From Acrocarpospora catenulata (GTDB taxonomy: Bacteria; Actinomycetota; Actinomycetes; Streptosporangiales; Streptosporangiaceae), in contig NZ_JAHCST010000085.1 of the NCBI RefSeq assembly GCF_018476525.1, positions 1-33,911 of the forward strand: a stretch of DNA of 33,911 nucleotides, written 5' to 3'. Numbering within the stretch: the first letter of the stretch is position 1; every line of letters starts with the position of its first letter. The notes under the pieces were generated by a model. That model was not told where the DNA came from. It did no database searches and was given only the letters and a program-made list of their open reading frames with translations. Shown piece by piece: positions 21,671 to 28,386 of the stretch. The translations under genes and the position numbers were made by a program.

Positions 21671-22069
21671 TCATGCCACGGCGGCCACGCGAGTGCGGCC
21701 GGCGCTGACCCAGCCGAGCTGAAGGACGCTCATGCCGAACATCAGGACGCCCAATGGGACGTGCAGGGTCTTCACGTGCGCTATGCCCAGCGCTATCTGC
21801 GCCAGCGTGAGACCGAAGAACCCGACCGCGTACAGGATGGGTTTGGGCGAGCCACCGCCCGGCCGCCACGCCAGGACCGCGGCGACCAGGTGCAGCAGCG
21901 CCACGGTGAACACCCCGTACGCCGACATACTGTGCAATGTCCGCCCGCTGGGTGAGGACAACAACAAGCCCGCGGTGATCGGTGCGGCGAAGACGGCCAA
22001 GGTTTGCAGGATGATCGCAACACGCAAGAACACAAAGTTGCCCTGCTTGATCGGCGTGGGTGTGGACAT
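21671..22069 (-). CDS. four-helix membrane protein, divergent partner of the ECF41 sigma factor
   Basis: 132 residues from ATG 22069 (GGGAG about 6 nt upstream; a start at 22090 lacks one). Four hydrophobic helices (about 14-38, 48-68, 77-97, 103-121) with little outside them: LRVAIILQTLAVFAAPITAG, a helix with LLHLVAAVLAW, and HVPLGVLMFGMSVLQLGWVS. Histidines lie in helices 2 and 4 and between 3 and 4, so haem or metal binding is possible. Its upstream promoter (22124-22150) matches that of the sigma gene, so it is a likely target of that sigma factor. Function is unknown. Confidence 0.65.
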   Translation of the reverse strand: MSTPTPIKQGNFVFLRVAIILQTLAVFAAPITAGLLLSSPSGRTLHSMSAYGVFTVALLHLVAAVLAWRPGGGSPKPILYAVGFFGLTLAQIALGIAHVKTLHVPLGVLMFGMSVLQLGWVSAGRTRVAAVA

Positions 22070-22123
22070 GGAGGTCTCCCCTTCTCCCATCTCGAGGCTT
22101 GCGGCCTGGTGTCTCAGTAGTCC

Positions 22124-22150
22124 GACGACACAACCGCTGGAAATGTGAGG
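22124..22150 (-). promoter_or_regulatory. ECF41-type promoter facing left (membrane protein)
   Basis: On the minus strand: CCTCACA (22144-22150), 16-nt spacer, CGTC (22124-22127). The published ECF41 consensus is TGTCACA-N16-CGTC; this differs in the first two bases only. The start codon lies 54 nt downstream. Confidence 0.7.
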
Positions 22151-22161
22151 CGACGCGCCAA

Positions 22162-22188
22162 CCTCACAGTTCGATGCGCTCTCTCGTC
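22162..22188 (+). promoter_or_regulatory. ECF41-type promoter facing right (sigma gene)
   Basis: On the plus strand: CCTCACA (22162-22168), 16-nt spacer, CGTC (22185-22188). The -35 heptamer and spacing are identical to those of the leftward promoter. It lies 42 nt before ATG 22231 and rules out the upstream ATG at 22174, which would be inside the promoter. Confidence 0.7.
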
Positions 22189-22230: not shown

Positions 22231-23175
22231 ATGACCACCTATTCCCAGCCGGGACACGGCCAGCCAGATCCGGGCCTGAGCGCGATCGTGAGCGAGCGGC
22301 GTCAGCTCATCAACCTCGCCTACCGGCTCCTGGGCTCCCTGGCCGATGCCGAGGATGTCGTACAGGAGACCTACGCCCGCTGGTACGCCATGTCCCGGCA
22401 GCAACAACAAGCCATCGAATCCCCCGGCGCCTGGCTGACGAAGGTCGCCGGCCGCATCTGCCTGGACCTGCTCGGCTCGGCCCGGGCCCGGCGCGAGAGC
22501 TACGTGGGCGAATGGATCCCTGAGCCACTGCCCGACCACACAGAGTGGATCAACGGGCGGCCGGGCGGCACCACGGCCGACCCGGCCGATCGGGTCACCC
22601 TCGACGAGTCGATCAACATGGCCTTCCTCGTCGTGCTCGAATCGATGACCCCCGCCGAGCGCATCGCGTTCATCCTGCACGACGTCTTCGGCTACCCCTT
22701 CGCCGAAGTCGCCGAAATCGTCGGGCGGACACCGGCAGCATGCCGCCAGTTGGCCTCCTCGGCCCGCCGCCGCATTCGCGCGTCACAGCCCCCCGCGACT
22801 CCAGCAGCGCCATCATCCAGCACTGTCAGAGACTTCAAACAAGCCTGGGAAGCCAAGAACATCGACGCCCTCATCGCCCTCCTCGACCCCGACGCCACAG
22901 CGATCGTCGACGGCGGCGGCCTGGCCAGCGCCGGCCTCCGCCCGATCGAAGGCAGCGAGCAGATCGCCCGCTACGTGCTCACCATCGCCAGCAGGGCACC
23001 CGACCTCACGATCCTGGAGCGCACGGTCAACGGCCAGCCCGGCCTGGTGGCTCAACAAGACGGCGTCACCGTAACGGTGGCAGCGTTCGACGTCACCAAC
23101 GACCGCATCAAACACATCTGGGCAGTACGCAACCCCGAAAAGCTCCGCCCTTGGACAGCAAGCCCACAGCACTAA
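22231..23175 (+). CDS. sigJ: ECF41-family (SigJ-like) RNA polymerase sigma factor
   Basis: 314 residues from ATG 22231. Sigma region 2 covers about 22-95 (LAYRLLGSLADAEDVVQETY), region 4 about 125-180 (VLESMTPAERIAFILHDVFG, YPFAEVAEIVGRTPAACRQL), and residues ~195-310 form a SnoaL-like fold (FKQAWEAKNIDALIALLDPD, AIVDGGG). In this group the SnoaL tail replaces an anti-sigma factor and tunes activity from within. No carboxymuconolactone decarboxylase or oxidoreductase gene, the usual ECF41 target, lies beside it; instead a small membrane protein diverges from a matching promoter. A GGGAG lies 11 nt before the ATG. Confidence 0.9.
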   Translation: MTTYSQPGHGQPDPGLSAIVSERRQLINLAYRLLGSLADAEDVVQETYARWYAMSRQQQQAIESPGAWLTKVAGRICLDLLGSARARRESYVGEWIPEPLPDHTEWINGRPGGTTADPADRVTLDESINMAFLVVLESMTPAERIAFILHDVFGYPFAEVAEIVGRTPAACRQLASSARRRIRASQPPATPAAPSSSTVRDFKQAWEAKNIDALIALLDPDATAIVDGGGLASAGLRPIEGSEQIARYVLTIASRAPDLTILERTVNGQPGLVAQQDGVTVTVAAFDVTNDRIKHIWAVRNPEKLRPWTASPQH

Positions 23176-23238: not shown

Positions 23239-23600
23239 GTGAACCGCGTGGAGCGTGTGGCCGGTGCGATCGTGGGCTCGGCGGTGGGTGACGCTCTCGG
23301 GGCGCCGTTCGAGTTCGGTCCGCCGGGTGCGTTCTCGGCTGCTTTCCCCCCGCCCTCCGCGCCGCGATCGACCTGGGGAGCGACACCGACACCGTCGCCA
23401 CGGTCACCGGCGCCCTGGCCAGAGCCGTCTACGGACTGCCCGCGATCCCCACCCGATGGACGAAGCCTCTGCACGTTCCCCTCCCCAGAAGCGGCGGCCG
23501 GACCCTGCGCCTGCCGCACCTACTGGAACTCGCCCATGCGCTGACAAACCGGACCCCGCCAGCGAACGACCCCACGCCACGCCAGGAGCCAGATTTCTGA
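23239..23600 (+). pseudogene. ADP-ribosylglycohydrolase with internal deletion and frameshift
   Basis: From GTG 23239 the first 35 codons read NRVERVAGAIVGSAVGDALG, APFEFGPPGAF, the N-terminus of ADP-ribosylglycohydrolases with its metal-site approach. At about 23350 the match jumps, in another frame, to ALRAAIDLGSDTDTVATVTG and ALARAVYGLPAIPTRW, the C-terminal DTDT metal motif and following helix. The ~200 residues between are missing. The C-terminal frame ends at TGA 23598-23600. No active enzyme can be made; the deletion looks old enough to have no repeats at the junction. Confidence 0.8.
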
Positions 23601-23672: not shown

Positions 23673-23873
23673 ATGGAACTTCGACTCCGCCTGCCTGATG
23701 AGGTCCACAGCCGACTGCGGGTCGTGGCTGAGGAGGACGGCAACAGCCTGAACACCGAGATCGTGATCGCGATCGAGGAGCACCTCGCGCGCCGTCAGAC
23801 CAGTGCGGTGCGGGCCATCGCCCGCAAGGTCGCCCAGCGCGACGCGGAACTACTGCACCGCCTCTCCCAGTGA
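23673..23873 (+). CDS. RHH-type antitoxin of the Doc toxin
   Basis: 66 residues from ATG 23673 (an upstream frame to 23631 has no ribosome-binding site). MELRLRLPDEVHSRLRVVAE gives the beta-strand and first helix of a ribbon-helix-helix fold, and NSLNTEIVIAIEEHL the second helix. The C-terminal helix (AVRAIARKVAQRDAELLHRL) should wrap around the toxin. It probably represses its own operon; TTGACA lies at 23631 and the repeated GGTAYC near 23645-23664 could be operator. It overlaps the toxin gene by 4 bases. Confidence 0.8.
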   Translation: MELRLRLPDEVHSRLRVVAEEDGNSLNTEIVIAIEEHLARRQTSAVRAIARKVAQRDAELLHRLSQ

Positions 23874-24271
23874 CCGTCTATCTGACCACGACCGATGTCC
23901 TGGCCGTCGCCGAGGAGATCCTGCCTTCGATCGGCCTGCGCGACGGCGGTCTCCTGCACGCTGCCGTTCTACGCCCACAGACCAGTCTGTACGGCCAGGA
24001 CGCGTACGCTGACCTGTGGACCAAGGCCGCGGCCCTGATGCAGAGCCTGATCATCGGCCACCCTCTGGTCGACGGCAACAAACGACTGGGCTGGACATGC
24101 GCCGTCGTCTTCCTGGAATTGAACGGCGAGACCCTGTCCGGCACCAATGCCGACGCTGCCGAGGAACGGGTCATCGCCGTCACCACCGGCGAACTCGACG
24201 ACGTGACCGAGATCGCCAAGAAACTCCGCGAACTGTGTCCGGATGACGGCCGAGGCCCCACGGACTCCTGA
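23870..24271 (+). CDS. doc: Doc-type (Fic fold) toxin
   Basis: 133 residues from GTG 23870, overlapping the antitoxin stop (GTGA). The catalytic motif HPLVDGNKRLGW (64-75) matches Doc (HxFxDANKR) rather than Fic (HPFxxGNGRxxR): Lys replaces the second Gly, as in P1 Doc, which phosphorylates EF-Tu instead of adding AMP. The usual Phe is Leu. The upstream beta-hairpin region (RPQTSLYGQDAYADLW) is the flap that holds the target. Predicted to halt translation when the labile antitoxin is lost. Confidence 0.88.
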   Translation: MTVYLTTTDVLAVAEEILPSIGLRDGGLLHAAVLRPQTSLYGQDAYADLWTKAAALMQSLIIGHPLVDGNKRLGWTCAVVFLELNGETLSGTNADAAEERVIAVTTGELDDVTEIAKKLRELCPDDGRGPTDS

Positions 24272-24715: not shown

Positions 24716-27700
24716 TCAGGCAGGTCCCTTGCGATGACACCTTTTGAGCTTCCTACCTGAGCCGCAGGGGCAAGCACTGTTCAACGCAAGAGAGCGAGCT
24801 TCTTGCAAACCTTTCATAGTGGGGTGGTCGGGCCCGTAGGCGGCCTGGGTTATCGCCAACGCCCGCTCAAACAGCGGAACCGCCTCACCCGACCTACCCA
24901 GATCACTGAAACTGGCCGCCAAGTTACTCAGCCTGACGGCGACAGTGGGGTGGTCGGGCCCGTAGGCGGCCTGGGTAATCGCCAACGCCCGCTCAAACAG
25001 CGGAACCGCCTCACCCGACCTACCCAGATCACTGAAACTGGCCGCCAAGTTACTCAGCCTGACGGCGACAGTGGGGTGGTCGGGCCCGTAGGCGGCCTGA
25101 GTGATCGCCAACGCCCGCTCAAACAGCGGAACCGCCTCACCCGACCTACCCAGATCACACAAACTCGCCGCCAAGTTACCCAGCCCGACGGCGACATCGG
25201 GGTGATCGGGGCCGTAGGCGGCCTCCGCGATCGCCAACGCCCGCCCCAGCAGCGGAACCGCCTCAGCCGACCTACCCAGATCGTACAAACTCAGCGCCAA
25301 GTTACCCAGCCCAACGGCGACAGCGGGATGGTCCGGGCCGTAGGCGGCCTCCGTGATCGCCAACGCCCGCTGCTCCAACGGAACCGCCTCACCCCACCTA
25401 CCCAGATCACGCAAAATCACCGCCAAGTTACCCAGCCGGATGGCGACAGTGGGGTGGTCGGGGCCGTAGGCGGCCTCCGTGATCGCCAACGCCCGCTCAA
25501 ACAGCGGAACCGCCTCACCCGACCTACCCAGATCACGCAAACTCGCCGCCAAGTTACCCAGCCTGACGGCGACATCGGGGTGATCGGGGCCGTAGACAGA
25601 CTCCGTGATCGCCAACGCCCGCTGCTCCAACAGAACCGCCTCACCCGACCTACCCAGATCACGCAAACTCGCCGCCAAGTTACCCAGCTTGACGGCGACA
25701 GTGGGGTGGTCGGGGCCGTAGGCGGCCTCCGTGATCGCCAACGCCCGCTGCTCCAACAGAACCGCCTCACCCGACCTACCCAGATCACGCAAACTCGCCG
25801 CCAAGTTACCCAGCCAGATGGCGACATCGGGGTGATCGGGGCCGTAGGCGGCCTCCGTGATCGCCAACGCCCGCTGCTCCAACGGAACCGCCTCACCCGA
25901 CCTACCCAGATCACCAAGGCTGGCCGCCAAGTTGCCCAGCCTGACGGCGACATCGGGGTGATCGGGGCCGTAGACAGACTCAGCGATCGCCAACGCCCGC
26001 TGCTCCAACGGAACCGCCTCACCCGACCTACCCAGATCACGCAAACTCCCCGCCAAGTTACCCAGCAATGTGGCGACATCGGGGTGGTCGGGGCCGTAGG
26101 CGGCCTCCGTGATCGCCAATGCCCGCTCAAACAGCGGAACCGCCTCACGCGGCCTACCCAGATCACTGAAACTGGCCGCCAAGTTGCTCAGCCTGACGGC
26201 AACAGCGGGGTGGTCGGGGCCGTAGGCGGCCTCCGTGATCGCCAACGCCCGCTGCTCCAGCAGGACCGCCTCACCCGACTTACCCAGATCACCAAGGTTG
26301 ACCGCCAAGTTACCCAGCCCGACGGCGACATCGGGGTGATCGGAGCCATATTCAGACTCAGCGATCGCCAACGCCCGCAAAGCGATGTCAACAGCGCGGC
26401 CATGGCTGCCCTGCACTCTGTGGAAGATCGCACTACTGTTGAGCACGCGTCCTAGGAGAGCGGGTTCGCTACTTTGCCGGTACCGGCTGGTGAGGGCGTC
26501 GATGTGTGGAGTGAGCTGCCTCCACCGTGGCCATCCTGAGGGATCGTACTGCGGGTCATCGGGTAGCGTGGCGGCCAGCCAGCCCAGGGCGGTGTCGCGG
26601 GCGGTGTCCGGGTCGGGTTGATCCTCATGGGTGCCGGTGAGCAGGACCGCTTGCATAAGTCGGTGCATGCTGATGGTGTCCTGGGTGAGGGTGACCATGC
26701 TGTAGGAGCTGAGCAGGCCCAAGGCCTCATCGATGTCGATCACGTCGGCGGTGTGCGGCAGGATGCTGCGCGGTATTTGGTCGGGTGCGTACTGGGCGAG
26801 GATGTACAGGAGCTGGACGGCTAGGGGATTGCGCTGGTTGATGGTGGTCAGGGTGATCTGCCAGAGGCGTGCGATAGTGCGCTCGGCTTGTCCGCCGTCG
26901 GCTGTGGCTGCATGCATGCGCGCGGGATGATCGGCTAGCAGCGCCAGGTAGCGGTCCAGGCTAATGCGGGTCTGAGCGATGTAGGCTGCGGCCTGTTCCA
27001 GCGCCAGCGGGAGGAAACCGAGTTCTTCCGCGAGCTGCCGAGCGAGGATTTCGTCACTGTCGCTGGTGTGCCCAGCCACTTTCATGATCAGTTTGGTTGC
27101 GGAGCCGGGGTCCAGGACGTCGAGGGGAATCGGGGTGGCAAGGCGGTGCCAGCCGATGTCGCGGCGGGTGGTGATCAAGACATGTCCGCTGGACAGCTGG
27201 CCCAGGAGCGGCTGGACGTGGTGCGGATCCTCGACGTTGTCCAGTACCAGTAGCCACTGGGTATGTGCCTGGAGCCAGTTCAGCGCCCATTGAGCTGCTT
27301 GCTGGCCGGTCTCGGCCAGCAAGATCGTTGTGGGAAGCAGACGTCCAGTCAGGGCGGCAAGTCCCGCCTCGATCTGTTCTTCATCGTTGGCTGTGATCCA
27401 CCAGCGCAGTTGGTAGCGGTCGCGGCAGTTGTGCGCGTGATGGAGTGCCAGCTCTGACTTGCCGACGCCGCCCAGCCCGTACACCGTCTGGGTGACGACC
27501 ACGTTCTCCTCATCGGCCAGCGCGGCACCCAGTCGCGCCAGGGCCTGATCTCGCCCGACGAAGATTCGGGCAGGGGTTCTAGGCAGATTGTTCATACCCG
27601 GAGGCGGCTGTACATCGGCCGGATGCGGCAACTCCGGCGACGGGGTGGAGATCTGCGGCATTCCCGCCAGCGTAGCCTGGACGTCGGCGATACCAGCCTG

Positions 27701-28165
27701 GAGCGCGCGGGCGTCGGCCTGCCTCAGCGTCTCGGGCAGGCCGCCACGATCGACGGCCACCTCATGGACCGTCTGCTCTGCCGCACTCTCCACCAACTGG
27801 ACGAGACGATCCAGGTCAAGGTCATGCCGAGCAAGAAACTCTTCACCAGTTTCCCCTTGGTGTGCCCCTCGCTGCGATCGAGCAGCAAGCAGTGGGGTGA
27901 GGGCCGCCTTGAGCGCCTGGGCGAATGAGTCGGTTTCGCCGACTCCGGCTTCATACCAAGCCGAGCGAGGCCCGCTCAGCAACCGGCGGATCGTGTCGGC
28001 CAACTGGTCCCCTTCAGCACCTTTCGGTAAATGCGCCCTGACCAGCTTCACTGTCTTCTTTAGGACCGCTTGCCGCTCACTGTCGGTGAAGCTTTTTCCC
28101 GTTACCCCGACAGCACGCTCCAAGACTTCCTCGATCACCCACCCGAGGAGGATCTCAGCAACCAC
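24716..28165 (-). CDS. NB-ARC/TPR STAND ATPase with C-terminal SEC-C motif
   Basis: 1149 residues from GTG 28165 (GAGAGGGG 9 nt upstream; ATG 28213 lacks one). Residues 1-190 are a helical N-terminal domain I do not recognise (EILLGWVIEEVLERAVGVTG). NB-ARC spans about 200-480: Walker A GLGGVGKSE (230-238), Walker B WLLVLDNVEDP, sensor VLITTRRD and GFLPLALEQAAAYI. A helical linker leads to 12 full 42-residue TPRs plus a partial one (597-1115; consensus RALAITEAAYGPDHPxVAVR). The end is CPCGSGRKLKRCH (C1132, C1134, C1143, H1144), a SEC-C zinc motif. STAND proteins are ligand-triggered switches; several defend against phages, others regulate transcription. The TPR array would sense and the N-terminal domain would act. 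No nuclease, TIR or protease motif is visible at the N-terminus. Confidence 0.85.
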   Translation of the reverse strand: MVAEILLGWVIEEVLERAVGVTGKSFTDSERQAVLKKTVKLVRAHLPKGAEGDQLADTIRRLLSGPRSAWYEAGVGETDSFAQALKAALTPLLAARSQRGAHQGETGEEFLARHDLDLDRLVQLVESAAEQTVHEVAVDRGGLPETLRQADARALQAGIADVQATLAGMPQISTPSPELPHPADVQPPPGMNNLPRTPARIFVGRDQALARLGAALADEENVVVTQTVYGLGGVGKSELALHHAHNCRDRYQLRWWITANDEEQIEAGLAALTGRLLPTTILLAETGQQAAQWALNWLQAHTQWLLVLDNVEDPHHVQPLLGQLSSGHVLITTRRDIGWHRLATPIPLDVLDPGSATKLIMKVAGHTSDSDEILARQLAEELGFLPLALEQAAAYIAQTRISLDRYLALLADHPARMHAATADGGQAERTIARLWQITLTTINQRNPLAVQLLYILAQYAPDQIPRSILPHTADVIDIDEALGLLSSYSMVTLTQDTISMHRLMQAVLLTGTHEDQPDPDTARDTALGWLAATLPDDPQYDPSGWPRWRQLTPHIDALTSRYRQSSEPALLGRVLNSSAIFHRVQGSHGRAVDIALRALAIAESEYGSDHPDVAVGLGNLAVNLGDLGKSGEAVLLEQRALAITEAAYGPDHPAVAVRLSNLAASFSDLGRPREAVPLFERALAITEAAYGPDHPDVATLLGNLAGSLRDLGRSGEAVPLEQRALAIAESVYGPDHPDVAVRLGNLAASLGDLGRSGEAVPLEQRALAITEAAYGPDHPDVAIWLGNLAASLRDLGRSGEAVLLEQRALAITEAAYGPDHPTVAVKLGNLAASLRDLGRSGEAVLLEQRALAITESVYGPDHPDVAVRLGNLAASLRDLGRSGEAVPLFERALAITEAAYGPDHPTVAIRLGNLAVILRDLGRWGEAVPLEQRALAITEAAYGPDHPAVAVGLGNLALSLYDLGRSAEAVPLLGRALAIAEAAYGPDHPDVAVGLGNLAASLCDLGRSGEAVPLFERALAITQAAYGPDHPTVAVRLSNLAASFSDLGRSGEAVPLFERALAITQAAYGPDHPTVAVRLSNLAASFSDLGRSGEAVPLFERALAITQAAYGPDHPTMKGLQEARSLALNSACPCGSGRKLKRCHRKGPA
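24866..26377 (-). repeat. twelve tandem 126-bp units coding the TPR array
   Basis: Each unit codes 42 residues, with exact period and no gaps, and neighbouring units are highly similar at DNA level. Units 11 and 12 encode identical peptides and are nearly identical in DNA. Because 126 is a multiple of three, the antisense strand is also open over the whole array. Confidence 0.9.
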
Positions 28166-28386
28166 GCGGCAACGCCCCTCTCGTCCTAAACGGCCTCCAC
28201 CCCGGCCATCCAACCTCTGACGACAGTCTGGCAGCGAACGGGCTCAACCGTGCGATAAGCCGAAGGAAGCGGCAACAGCAGGCTTGTGTGATAGAGAACA
28301 CTAGGTCCTCAATCGGCCCCTTACCGAACAGGACCGGGCCAGAAGCTTGTTCACCAAGGATTCCCTAAGGTCCCGCAGGCCACGAA

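What the first reader, a model, noticed from the sequence alone, without database searches (positions are those of the whole stretch)
22124..22188. Two identical ECF41 promoter signatures back to back between the sigma factor and a membrane protein
Seen: CCTCACA-N16-CGTC occurs once on each strand in the 65 bases between the genes, with identical -35 heptamers and exact 16-nt spacing, pointing outward at the sigma gene and at a four-helix membrane protein. Known: ECF41 promoters are TGTCACA-N16-CGTC and usually drive carboxymuconolactone decarboxylase, oxidoreductase or epimerase genes. Inferred: this sigma factor activates itself and a membrane protein, a different target type, with a CC variant of the -35 box. 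The pair could be a self-contained membrane stress switch.
Basis: partly seen in the sequence, partly recalled or inferred. Interest (0 to 1): 0.75.

Follow-up and report, generated by a model that had tools for sequence, protein, structure and literature searches.

The report
Self-activating sigma factor's two-way promoter
A bacterial transcription switch (an ECF41-type sigma factor) sits beside a back-to-back pair of what look like its own promoters, one for itself and one for a small membrane protein, and related bacteria often keep the pair at a fixed distance while exchanging the gene it drives.

Summary
CCTCACA-N16-CGTC lies once on each strand (22124-22150 -, 22162-22188 +); 0 of 100 shuffles held two matches, and the 10.29-Mb genome has one other exact match. 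The sigma gene (22231-23175) is of the SigJ/ECF41 kind; its 132-residue partner is predicted as four helices.
Conservation supports function. A stricter box occurs in 129 of 341 family genomes, against 7 of 341 with a 17-nt spacer. Of 54 relatives with divergent, adjacent sigma and membrane genes, 45 have a box facing the membrane gene; 17 (22 with variants) have one facing sigma.
Best reading: a self-amplifying ECF41 module with a fixed bidirectional promoter and exchangeable output; here its visible regulon is two genes. Promoter activity, signal and membrane-protein function are untested. New variant of a known kind.

The parts
22231..23175 (+). ECF41-type sigma factor gene (314 aa, regions 2 and 4 plus C-terminal SnoaL_2 domain)
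   Evidence: Pfam Sigma70_r2, Sigma70_r4_2, SnoaL_2; NCBIfam SigJ subfamily NF007214, 307 bits, above its cut-off of 271; best PDB sequence match M. tuberculosis SigJ 5xe7, E 2.5e-48; YVGEWIPEP, DGGG and NPEKL motifs
22162..22188 (+). Promoter box CCTCACA-N16-CGTC facing the sigma gene; box end to ATG 42 nt
   Evidence: 62 of 140 examined sites of this kind precede a sigma homologue
22151..22161 (.). 11-bp gap between the two -35 boxes
   Evidence: gap of 10-12 bp in 56 of 79 distinct divergent box pairs, 11 bp in 40
22124..22150 (-). Promoter box CCTCACA-N16-CGTC facing the membrane-protein gene; box end to ATG about 54 nt
   Evidence: a box faces the membrane gene in 45 of 54 divergent orthologous loci
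21671..22069 (-). 132-aa membrane protein, four predicted helices, invariant H46 and H103 (alternative start at 22090)
   Evidence: no Pfam match at E<=0.001; alignments of 32 and 68 sequences; AlphaFold2 pLDDT 84.5, helices 6-38, 42-67, 76-96, 100-131

Best explanation
A self-amplifying ECF41 module. A signal acting on the SnoaL-like C-terminal domain (inferred from the ECF41 literature) lets the sigma factor bind RNA polymerase. The holoenzyme recognises CCTCACA-NTYC...TCGTC in two back-to-back copies, transcribing the sigma gene one way and a four-helix membrane protein the other. The pair is a fixed bidirectional promoter (most often 11 bp between the -35 boxes) to which different output genes have been attached during evolution; in this genome the visible output is the membrane protein alone. 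Shown here: boxes, their conservation, lineage consensus, preferred gap, change of partner on the sigma tree. Inferred: transcription from them, sigma dependence, the signal, and that the membrane protein is a redox (possibly heme-binding) protein.
For: Boxes beyond chance. Sigma is of the SigJ/ECF41 subfamily and its homologues carry the ECF41 motifs: W[LI]PEP 103 of 117, DGGG 112 of 117, NP[DE]KL 113 of 117 in the main lineage. Family scan: 129 of 341 genomes with the 16-nt form (reversed control 3 hits by my reading of its table); the identical pattern with a 17-nt spacer 7 of 341. Of 140 examined sites, 62 precede sigma, 19 the membrane gene, 17 CMD, 10 YceI, 11 SnoaL-like, 6 flavodoxin-like, 5 DoxX-like, 10 unassigned (Pfam names of representatives). 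Membrane-side box in 45 of 54 divergent loci: 38 CCTCACA, 7 CCTTACC, 15-17 nt and C or T before GTC allowed. Gap 10-12 bp in 56 of 79 divergent pairs. Partner label changes 27 times on the sigma tree; two genomes of the window's own genus have a DoxX-like gene there instead, with an 11-bp gap.
Against: No expression data. 9 of 54 divergent loci lack a membrane-side box by my patterns; 32 of 54 lack a sigma-side box, among them 15 of 17 Streptomyces loci by my count. 16 of 80 membrane homologues have no sigma match above 250 bits within 2.5 kb (some stretches are cut short), and the 80 are the best of 342. The -35 differs from the published ECF41 consensus TGTCACA (PMC3426412). Partner labels are clustered on the sigma tree, more than in any shuffle, so exchange is repeated but not frequent. 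Site counts come from related genomes and are not independent; the listing was cut short and I examined part of it.
Confidence: 0.85

Rival explanations
1. The boxes are operator sites for a separate dimeric regulator: the pair forms an inverted repeat (TGTGAGG-N11-CCTCACA) that a transcription factor could bind, and the likeness to ECF promoters is incidental.
For: The two heptamers are perfect inverted copies with a preferred gap of about one helical turn, as expected for a dimer operator.
Against: By the strict pattern, only 25 divergent pairs occur among the 140 sites, so single boxes are common (a looser box finds more pairs); the -10 TCGTC is tied to the 16-nt spacer (129 of 341 genomes against 7 of 341 at 17 nt); the -35 variant CCTTACC goes with a distinct sigma clade with a changed region 4; a second gap class of 0 bp exists.
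Confidence: 0.06
2. The boxes are genuine promoters but read mainly by one of the other ECF41 paralogues in the genome.
For: The genome holds six more sigma matches at 33-42% identity along most of the length, one of them with a stop inside.
Against: In relatives the box lies beside this sigma lineage; the four paralogues that I aligned differ in region 4; none of the six paralogue loci showed a CCTCACA box in the stretches held.
Confidence: 0.05
3. The membrane protein regulates the sigma factor (an unusual anti-sigma or sensor) rather than being an output.
For: Divergent linkage in 54 of 80 named loci; sigma-regulator pairs are often adjacent (general knowledge).
Against: The same sigma lineage lies beside CMD, YceI, flavodoxin-like or DoxX-like genes; the predicted protein is nearly all helix; published ECF41 factors are reported to be controlled by their own C-terminal extension (PMC3426412, abstract).
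Confidence: 0.12

Closest known systems
ECF41 sigma factors (Ecf41Bli, Ecf41Rsp; Wecke et al. 2012, PMC3426412)
   Same: Fused C-terminal extension, linker and C-terminal motifs, no evident anti-sigma gene, very small regulon, 16-nt spacer and CGTC -10; divergent sigma/target gene pairs with two promoters are described there (section 25).
   Different: -35 is CCTCACA instead of TGTCACA; [quoted passage not shown] the preferred 11-bp gap is not described in the sections and passages I read.
Mycobacterium tuberculosis SigJ (5xe7)
   Same: Closest sequence with a solved structure (E 2.5e-48); match runs through regions 2, 4 and the C-terminal domain.
   Different: Partner genes and promoter not compared; the SigJ promoter paper was not held.
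DoxX_2 membrane proteins
   Same: Small membrane proteins that occupy the same partner slot (L055), and a similar gene in two genomes of the window's genus (by likeness to that group, not scanned itself).
   Different: The window's protein does not match DoxX_2 or any Pfam family at E<=0.001.

Membership tests
ECF41 sigma factors | Sigma regions 2 and 4 plus SnoaL-like C-terminal extension | tested here: met
   Pfam; NCBIfam SigJ subfamily above cut-off
ECF41 sigma factors | WLPEP-type linker motif and NPDKL-type C-terminal motif (PMC3426412; PMC7730460) | tested here: met
   YVGEWIPEP and NPEKL in the window protein, with I for L and E for D; conserved in the lineage
ECF41 sigma factors | -10 CGTC, 16 +/- 1 nt spacer | tested here: met
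ECF41 sigma factors | -35 TGTCACA | tested here: not met
   CCTCACA at both sites. The motif is a consensus of the group's promoters, not a feature of the protein, so I count this as a lineage variant rather than as exclusion
ECF41 sigma factors | Target is a CMD, oxidoreductase or epimerase gene | tested here: inconclusive
   Not met in the window; met elsewhere in the same lineage (17 CMD and 6 flavodoxin-like of 140 sites; one Pyr_redox_2 and one NAD(P)H-binding gene). ECF41 genes without such partners are also counted in PMC3426412, Table 4
ECF41 sigma factors | Sigma-dependent transcription and autoinhibition by the extension | not testable with these tools
   needs bench work
Heme-b four-helix membrane proteins (cytochrome b561-like, CtaA-like) | Significant sequence or fold match | tested here: not met
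   Sub-threshold Pfam hits in 2 or 3 of 32 homologues, not in the window protein itself; no Foldseek match at E<=0.001
Heme-b four-helix membrane proteins (cytochrome b561-like, CtaA-like) | Conserved axial histidines on membrane helices | tested here: inconclusive
   H46 and H103 invariant in 68 of 68, near the starts of helices 2 and 4; consistent with one bis-His site, not proof

The most novel reading that the evidence does not exclude
The divergent box pair is a standardised cassette with exchangeable output. The 11-bp (or 0-bp) gap is selected because two holoenzymes cannot, or must, sit back to back, so each firing is divided between making more sigma and making output; swapping the output gene behind a constant promoter lets one signal be re-wired between detoxifying enzymes and a new bis-histidine membrane redox protein. 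The recognition helix (Arg172 to Lys) has co-evolved with the -35 box (CCTCACA to CCTTACC).
Probability: 0.25. Interest if true: 0.7.

Novelty: new variant of a known kind. Interest (0 to 1): 0.5.

Why it matters
ECF41 genes were found in 60 of 118 sequenced actinobacterial species by Wecke et al. (PMC3426412, Table 3), yet their signals and many targets are unknown. This lineage offers a compact, testable unit: in this genome seemingly one sigma, two promoters and one output. The preferred gap makes it possible to ask whether two divergent promoters compete or cooperate, the natural CCTCACA/CCTTACC split gives a candidate specificity residue, and a conserved membrane protein with no Pfam match gains a regulatory context.

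Tried and rejected
Tried without gain. Foldseek of the membrane protein against the PDB gave 381 matches at E<=10 and none at E<=0.001. A profile search of PDB sequences gave two hits at E 0.43 and 0.44. NCBIfam gave one far sub-threshold toxin hit to the membrane protein (15.7 bits against 70), rejected. The third exact box in the genome was rejected as a target. Canonical TGTCACA-N16-CGTC has 2 sites in the genome against 1 in the reversed control, so canonical ECF41 promoters were not identified for the paralogues. The paper search for CCTCACA with 'sigma factor' gave two papers that look unrelated by their listing.

Considered and rejected: a dimer operator; another sigma as reader; membrane protein as anti-sigma (see rivals). 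'Membrane stress' as the signal: no evidence for it.

Limits. One search's listing was cut short; I examined 140 distinct sites in L053-L161 and the window. Partner labels come from similarity to representatives, and 10 of 140 sites stay unassigned. The tree is FastTree only. The CCTTACC sigmas (10 rows) look like one group, so the R172K link may rest on one event; 17 columns differ between the groups, not only this one. The other 117 rows include sigmas whose promoter I did not see. The convergent arrangement, found 0 times, is a weak control, because the loci were chosen around divergent genes. The 2021 ECF reclassification (NAR 49:986) and the SigJ promoter paper were not held, so I cannot say whether the CC motif is already catalogued there. 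PMC3426412: outline, abstract, sections 20, 21, 25 and passages read; its supplements were not seen. PMC8999054, PMC8103513, PMC7730460, PMC9205884: passages only. Other papers: search listings only.

Full report
Observation. Shuffled windows gave 0.03 matches on average and never two (0 of 100). The whole 10.29-Mb genome has three exact matches, two of them here. With a fuller consensus these two have 0 and 1 mismatches, two other sites have 2, and the 25 matches at up to three mismatches compare with 18 for the reversed control. In this genome the visible regulon is therefore two genes.

Genes. The plus-strand gene (22231-23175) has sigma regions 2 and 4 and a SnoaL_2 domain. It passes the NCBIfam SigJ-subfamily cut-off (307 against 271 bits) and matches M. 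tuberculosis SigJ best among solved structures. It has YVGEWIPEP and NPEKL, close to the ECF41 motifs YVGPWLPEP and NPDKL quoted in PMC7730460 (passages). The minus-strand gene (21671-22069) encodes 132 residues with no Pfam family at E<=0.001. AlphaFold2 with 68 sequences predicts four long helices (pLDDT 84.5). H46 and H103 are invariant in that alignment and lie near the starts of helices 2 and 4, which puts them on the same membrane face (inference). Sub-threshold Pfam hits of 2 or 3 of 32 homologues each include Ferric_reduct, COX15-CtaA and Ni_hydr_CYTB, beside others without that theme; the window protein itself hits none of these three. Foldseek found nothing significant. A heme or metal site is a guess.

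Conservation. With the pattern CCTCACANTYC-N11-TCGTC, 129 of 341 genomes of the family have a match; the reversed pattern has 3 hits by my reading of the table. The identical pattern with one more base in the spacer is in 7 of 341. A search for the membrane protein in named genomes kept the best 80 of 342 relatives: Nonomuraea, Microtetraspora, Planomonospora, Planobispora, Streptosporangium, Streptomyces, Kitasatospora, Amycolatopsis, Rhodococcus, Actinocatenispora and others. Of these 80, 64 have a sigma match above 250 bits within 2.5 kb and 54 have it divergent and adjacent. Of the 54, 45 have a box facing the membrane gene (38 CCTCACA, 7 CCTTACC; spacers of 15-17 nt and CGTC or TGTC allowed); 17 have CCTCACA facing sigma, and 5 more a variant. 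The output promoter is thus better conserved than autoregulation; 15 of 17 Streptomyces loci in this set show no sigma-side box (my count). Two Amycolatopsis loci without a sigma match have TGTCACC boxes before the membrane gene. In a class-wide sample the strict box is in 16 of 246 genomes, 7 of them outside the family (second number counted from its table).

What else the box drives. Around the hits I read 140 distinct sites in 110 loci (29 delivered, 80 fetched, and the window's L022). Downstream genes: sigma 62, membrane protein 19, CMD 17, SnoaL-like 11, YceI 10, flavodoxin-like 6, DoxX-like 5, unassigned 10. Pfam on one representative of each cluster gave CMD, YceI, SnoaL_3, SnoaL_4, SnoaL, FMN_red and DoxX_2; two unassigned sites precede a Pyr_redox_2 gene and an NAD(P)H-binding gene whose NmrA match is below cut-off. 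So the CMD and oxidoreductase classes of Wecke et al., and perhaps the epimerase/NmrA class, occur with this CC promoter, together with further ones.

Geometry and partner exchange. In the strict set, 25 divergent pairs lie within 400 bp: 18 have 10-12 bp between the -35 boxes, 5 have 0, one 5 and one 61. Over all loci then held and a looser box, 79 distinct pairs give 56 with 10-12 bp (40 with 11) and 10 with 0. The 10-12 bp class includes membrane, CMD, YceI and flavodoxin partners; the 0-bp class is CMD in the strict set. On a FastTree of 127 sigmas plus 4 paralogues, the partner label needs 27 changes among labelled rows; starred branches alone force at least 7 for the membrane label and 7 for CMD; labels are nevertheless more clustered than in shuffles. 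In two genomes of the window's own genus the sigma (82-83% identical) has a DoxX-like gene on the other side of an 11-bp gap, with CCTCACC as its -35. Sequence after the -10 is also shared across unrelated partners (G-N-A-C, then often TGA, less so before CMD and the membrane gene), so the promoter may extend into the first transcribed bases.

Specificity. Sigmas beside CCTTACC boxes (10 rows) all have Lys at position 172, by its place in the region 4 recognition helix; 116 of 117 other rows have Arg, and so do the 4 paralogues. This is a candidate contact for the C-to-T change, but 16 other columns also differ.

Mechanism. Most likely, a change in the SnoaL-like extension lets the sigma bind RNA polymerase and fire both promoters; one arm amplifies the sigma, the other makes the membrane protein. 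The 11-bp gap is about one helical turn, and polymerases reach further upstream than the -35, so simultaneous occupancy may be hindered or cooperative (inference). Signal and output function are unknown. I think redox or lipophilic-compound stress likelier than envelope stress, because several of the alternative partners are redox or small-molecule proteins.

Known or new. ECF41 and divergent ECF41/target pairs with two promoters are known (PMC3426412, sections 20, 21, 25 read: 55 divergent cases of 373, 36 with a sigma-side and 41 with a target-side promoter). I saw no mention there of the CC form, the preferred gap or this membrane family, and paper searches showed none in the listings, abstracts or passages seen; the 2021 reclassification was not held. 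I file it as a new variant of a known kind.

Noticed in passing
24716-28213 (-): Large protein with NB-ARC domain, twelve TPR_12 stretches and a SEC-C tail, STAND-like (recalled); the repeats look strikingly uniform in sequence.
   Followed up: partly
23870-24271 (+): Fic/DOC family protein (E 1.4e-12), downstream of the sigma gene; possibly a Doc-type toxin (recalled).
   Followed up: partly
23239-23544 (+): Short ORF matching only the first 33 of 287 positions of ADP-ribosylglycohydrolase: apparently a fragment right after the sigma gene.
   Followed up: partly
L206:2929-2955 and L212:2930-2956: Two Amycolatopsis membrane homologues are preceded by TGTCACC-N16-CGTC boxes with no sigma match in the locus, nearer the published ECF41 consensus.
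   Followed up: no
L236, L238, L240-L242, L247-L249: Streptosporangium and Streptomyces loci with CCTTACC-TTTC boxes facing the membrane gene; in the 7 divergent ones no sigma-side box was found, and the aligned sigmas have Lys instead of Arg at position 172.
   Followed up: partly
Possibly decaying.
   Followed up: partly
L001:1562-1628: Three TCTCTAGATA words just upstream of the third exact box match.
   Followed up: no
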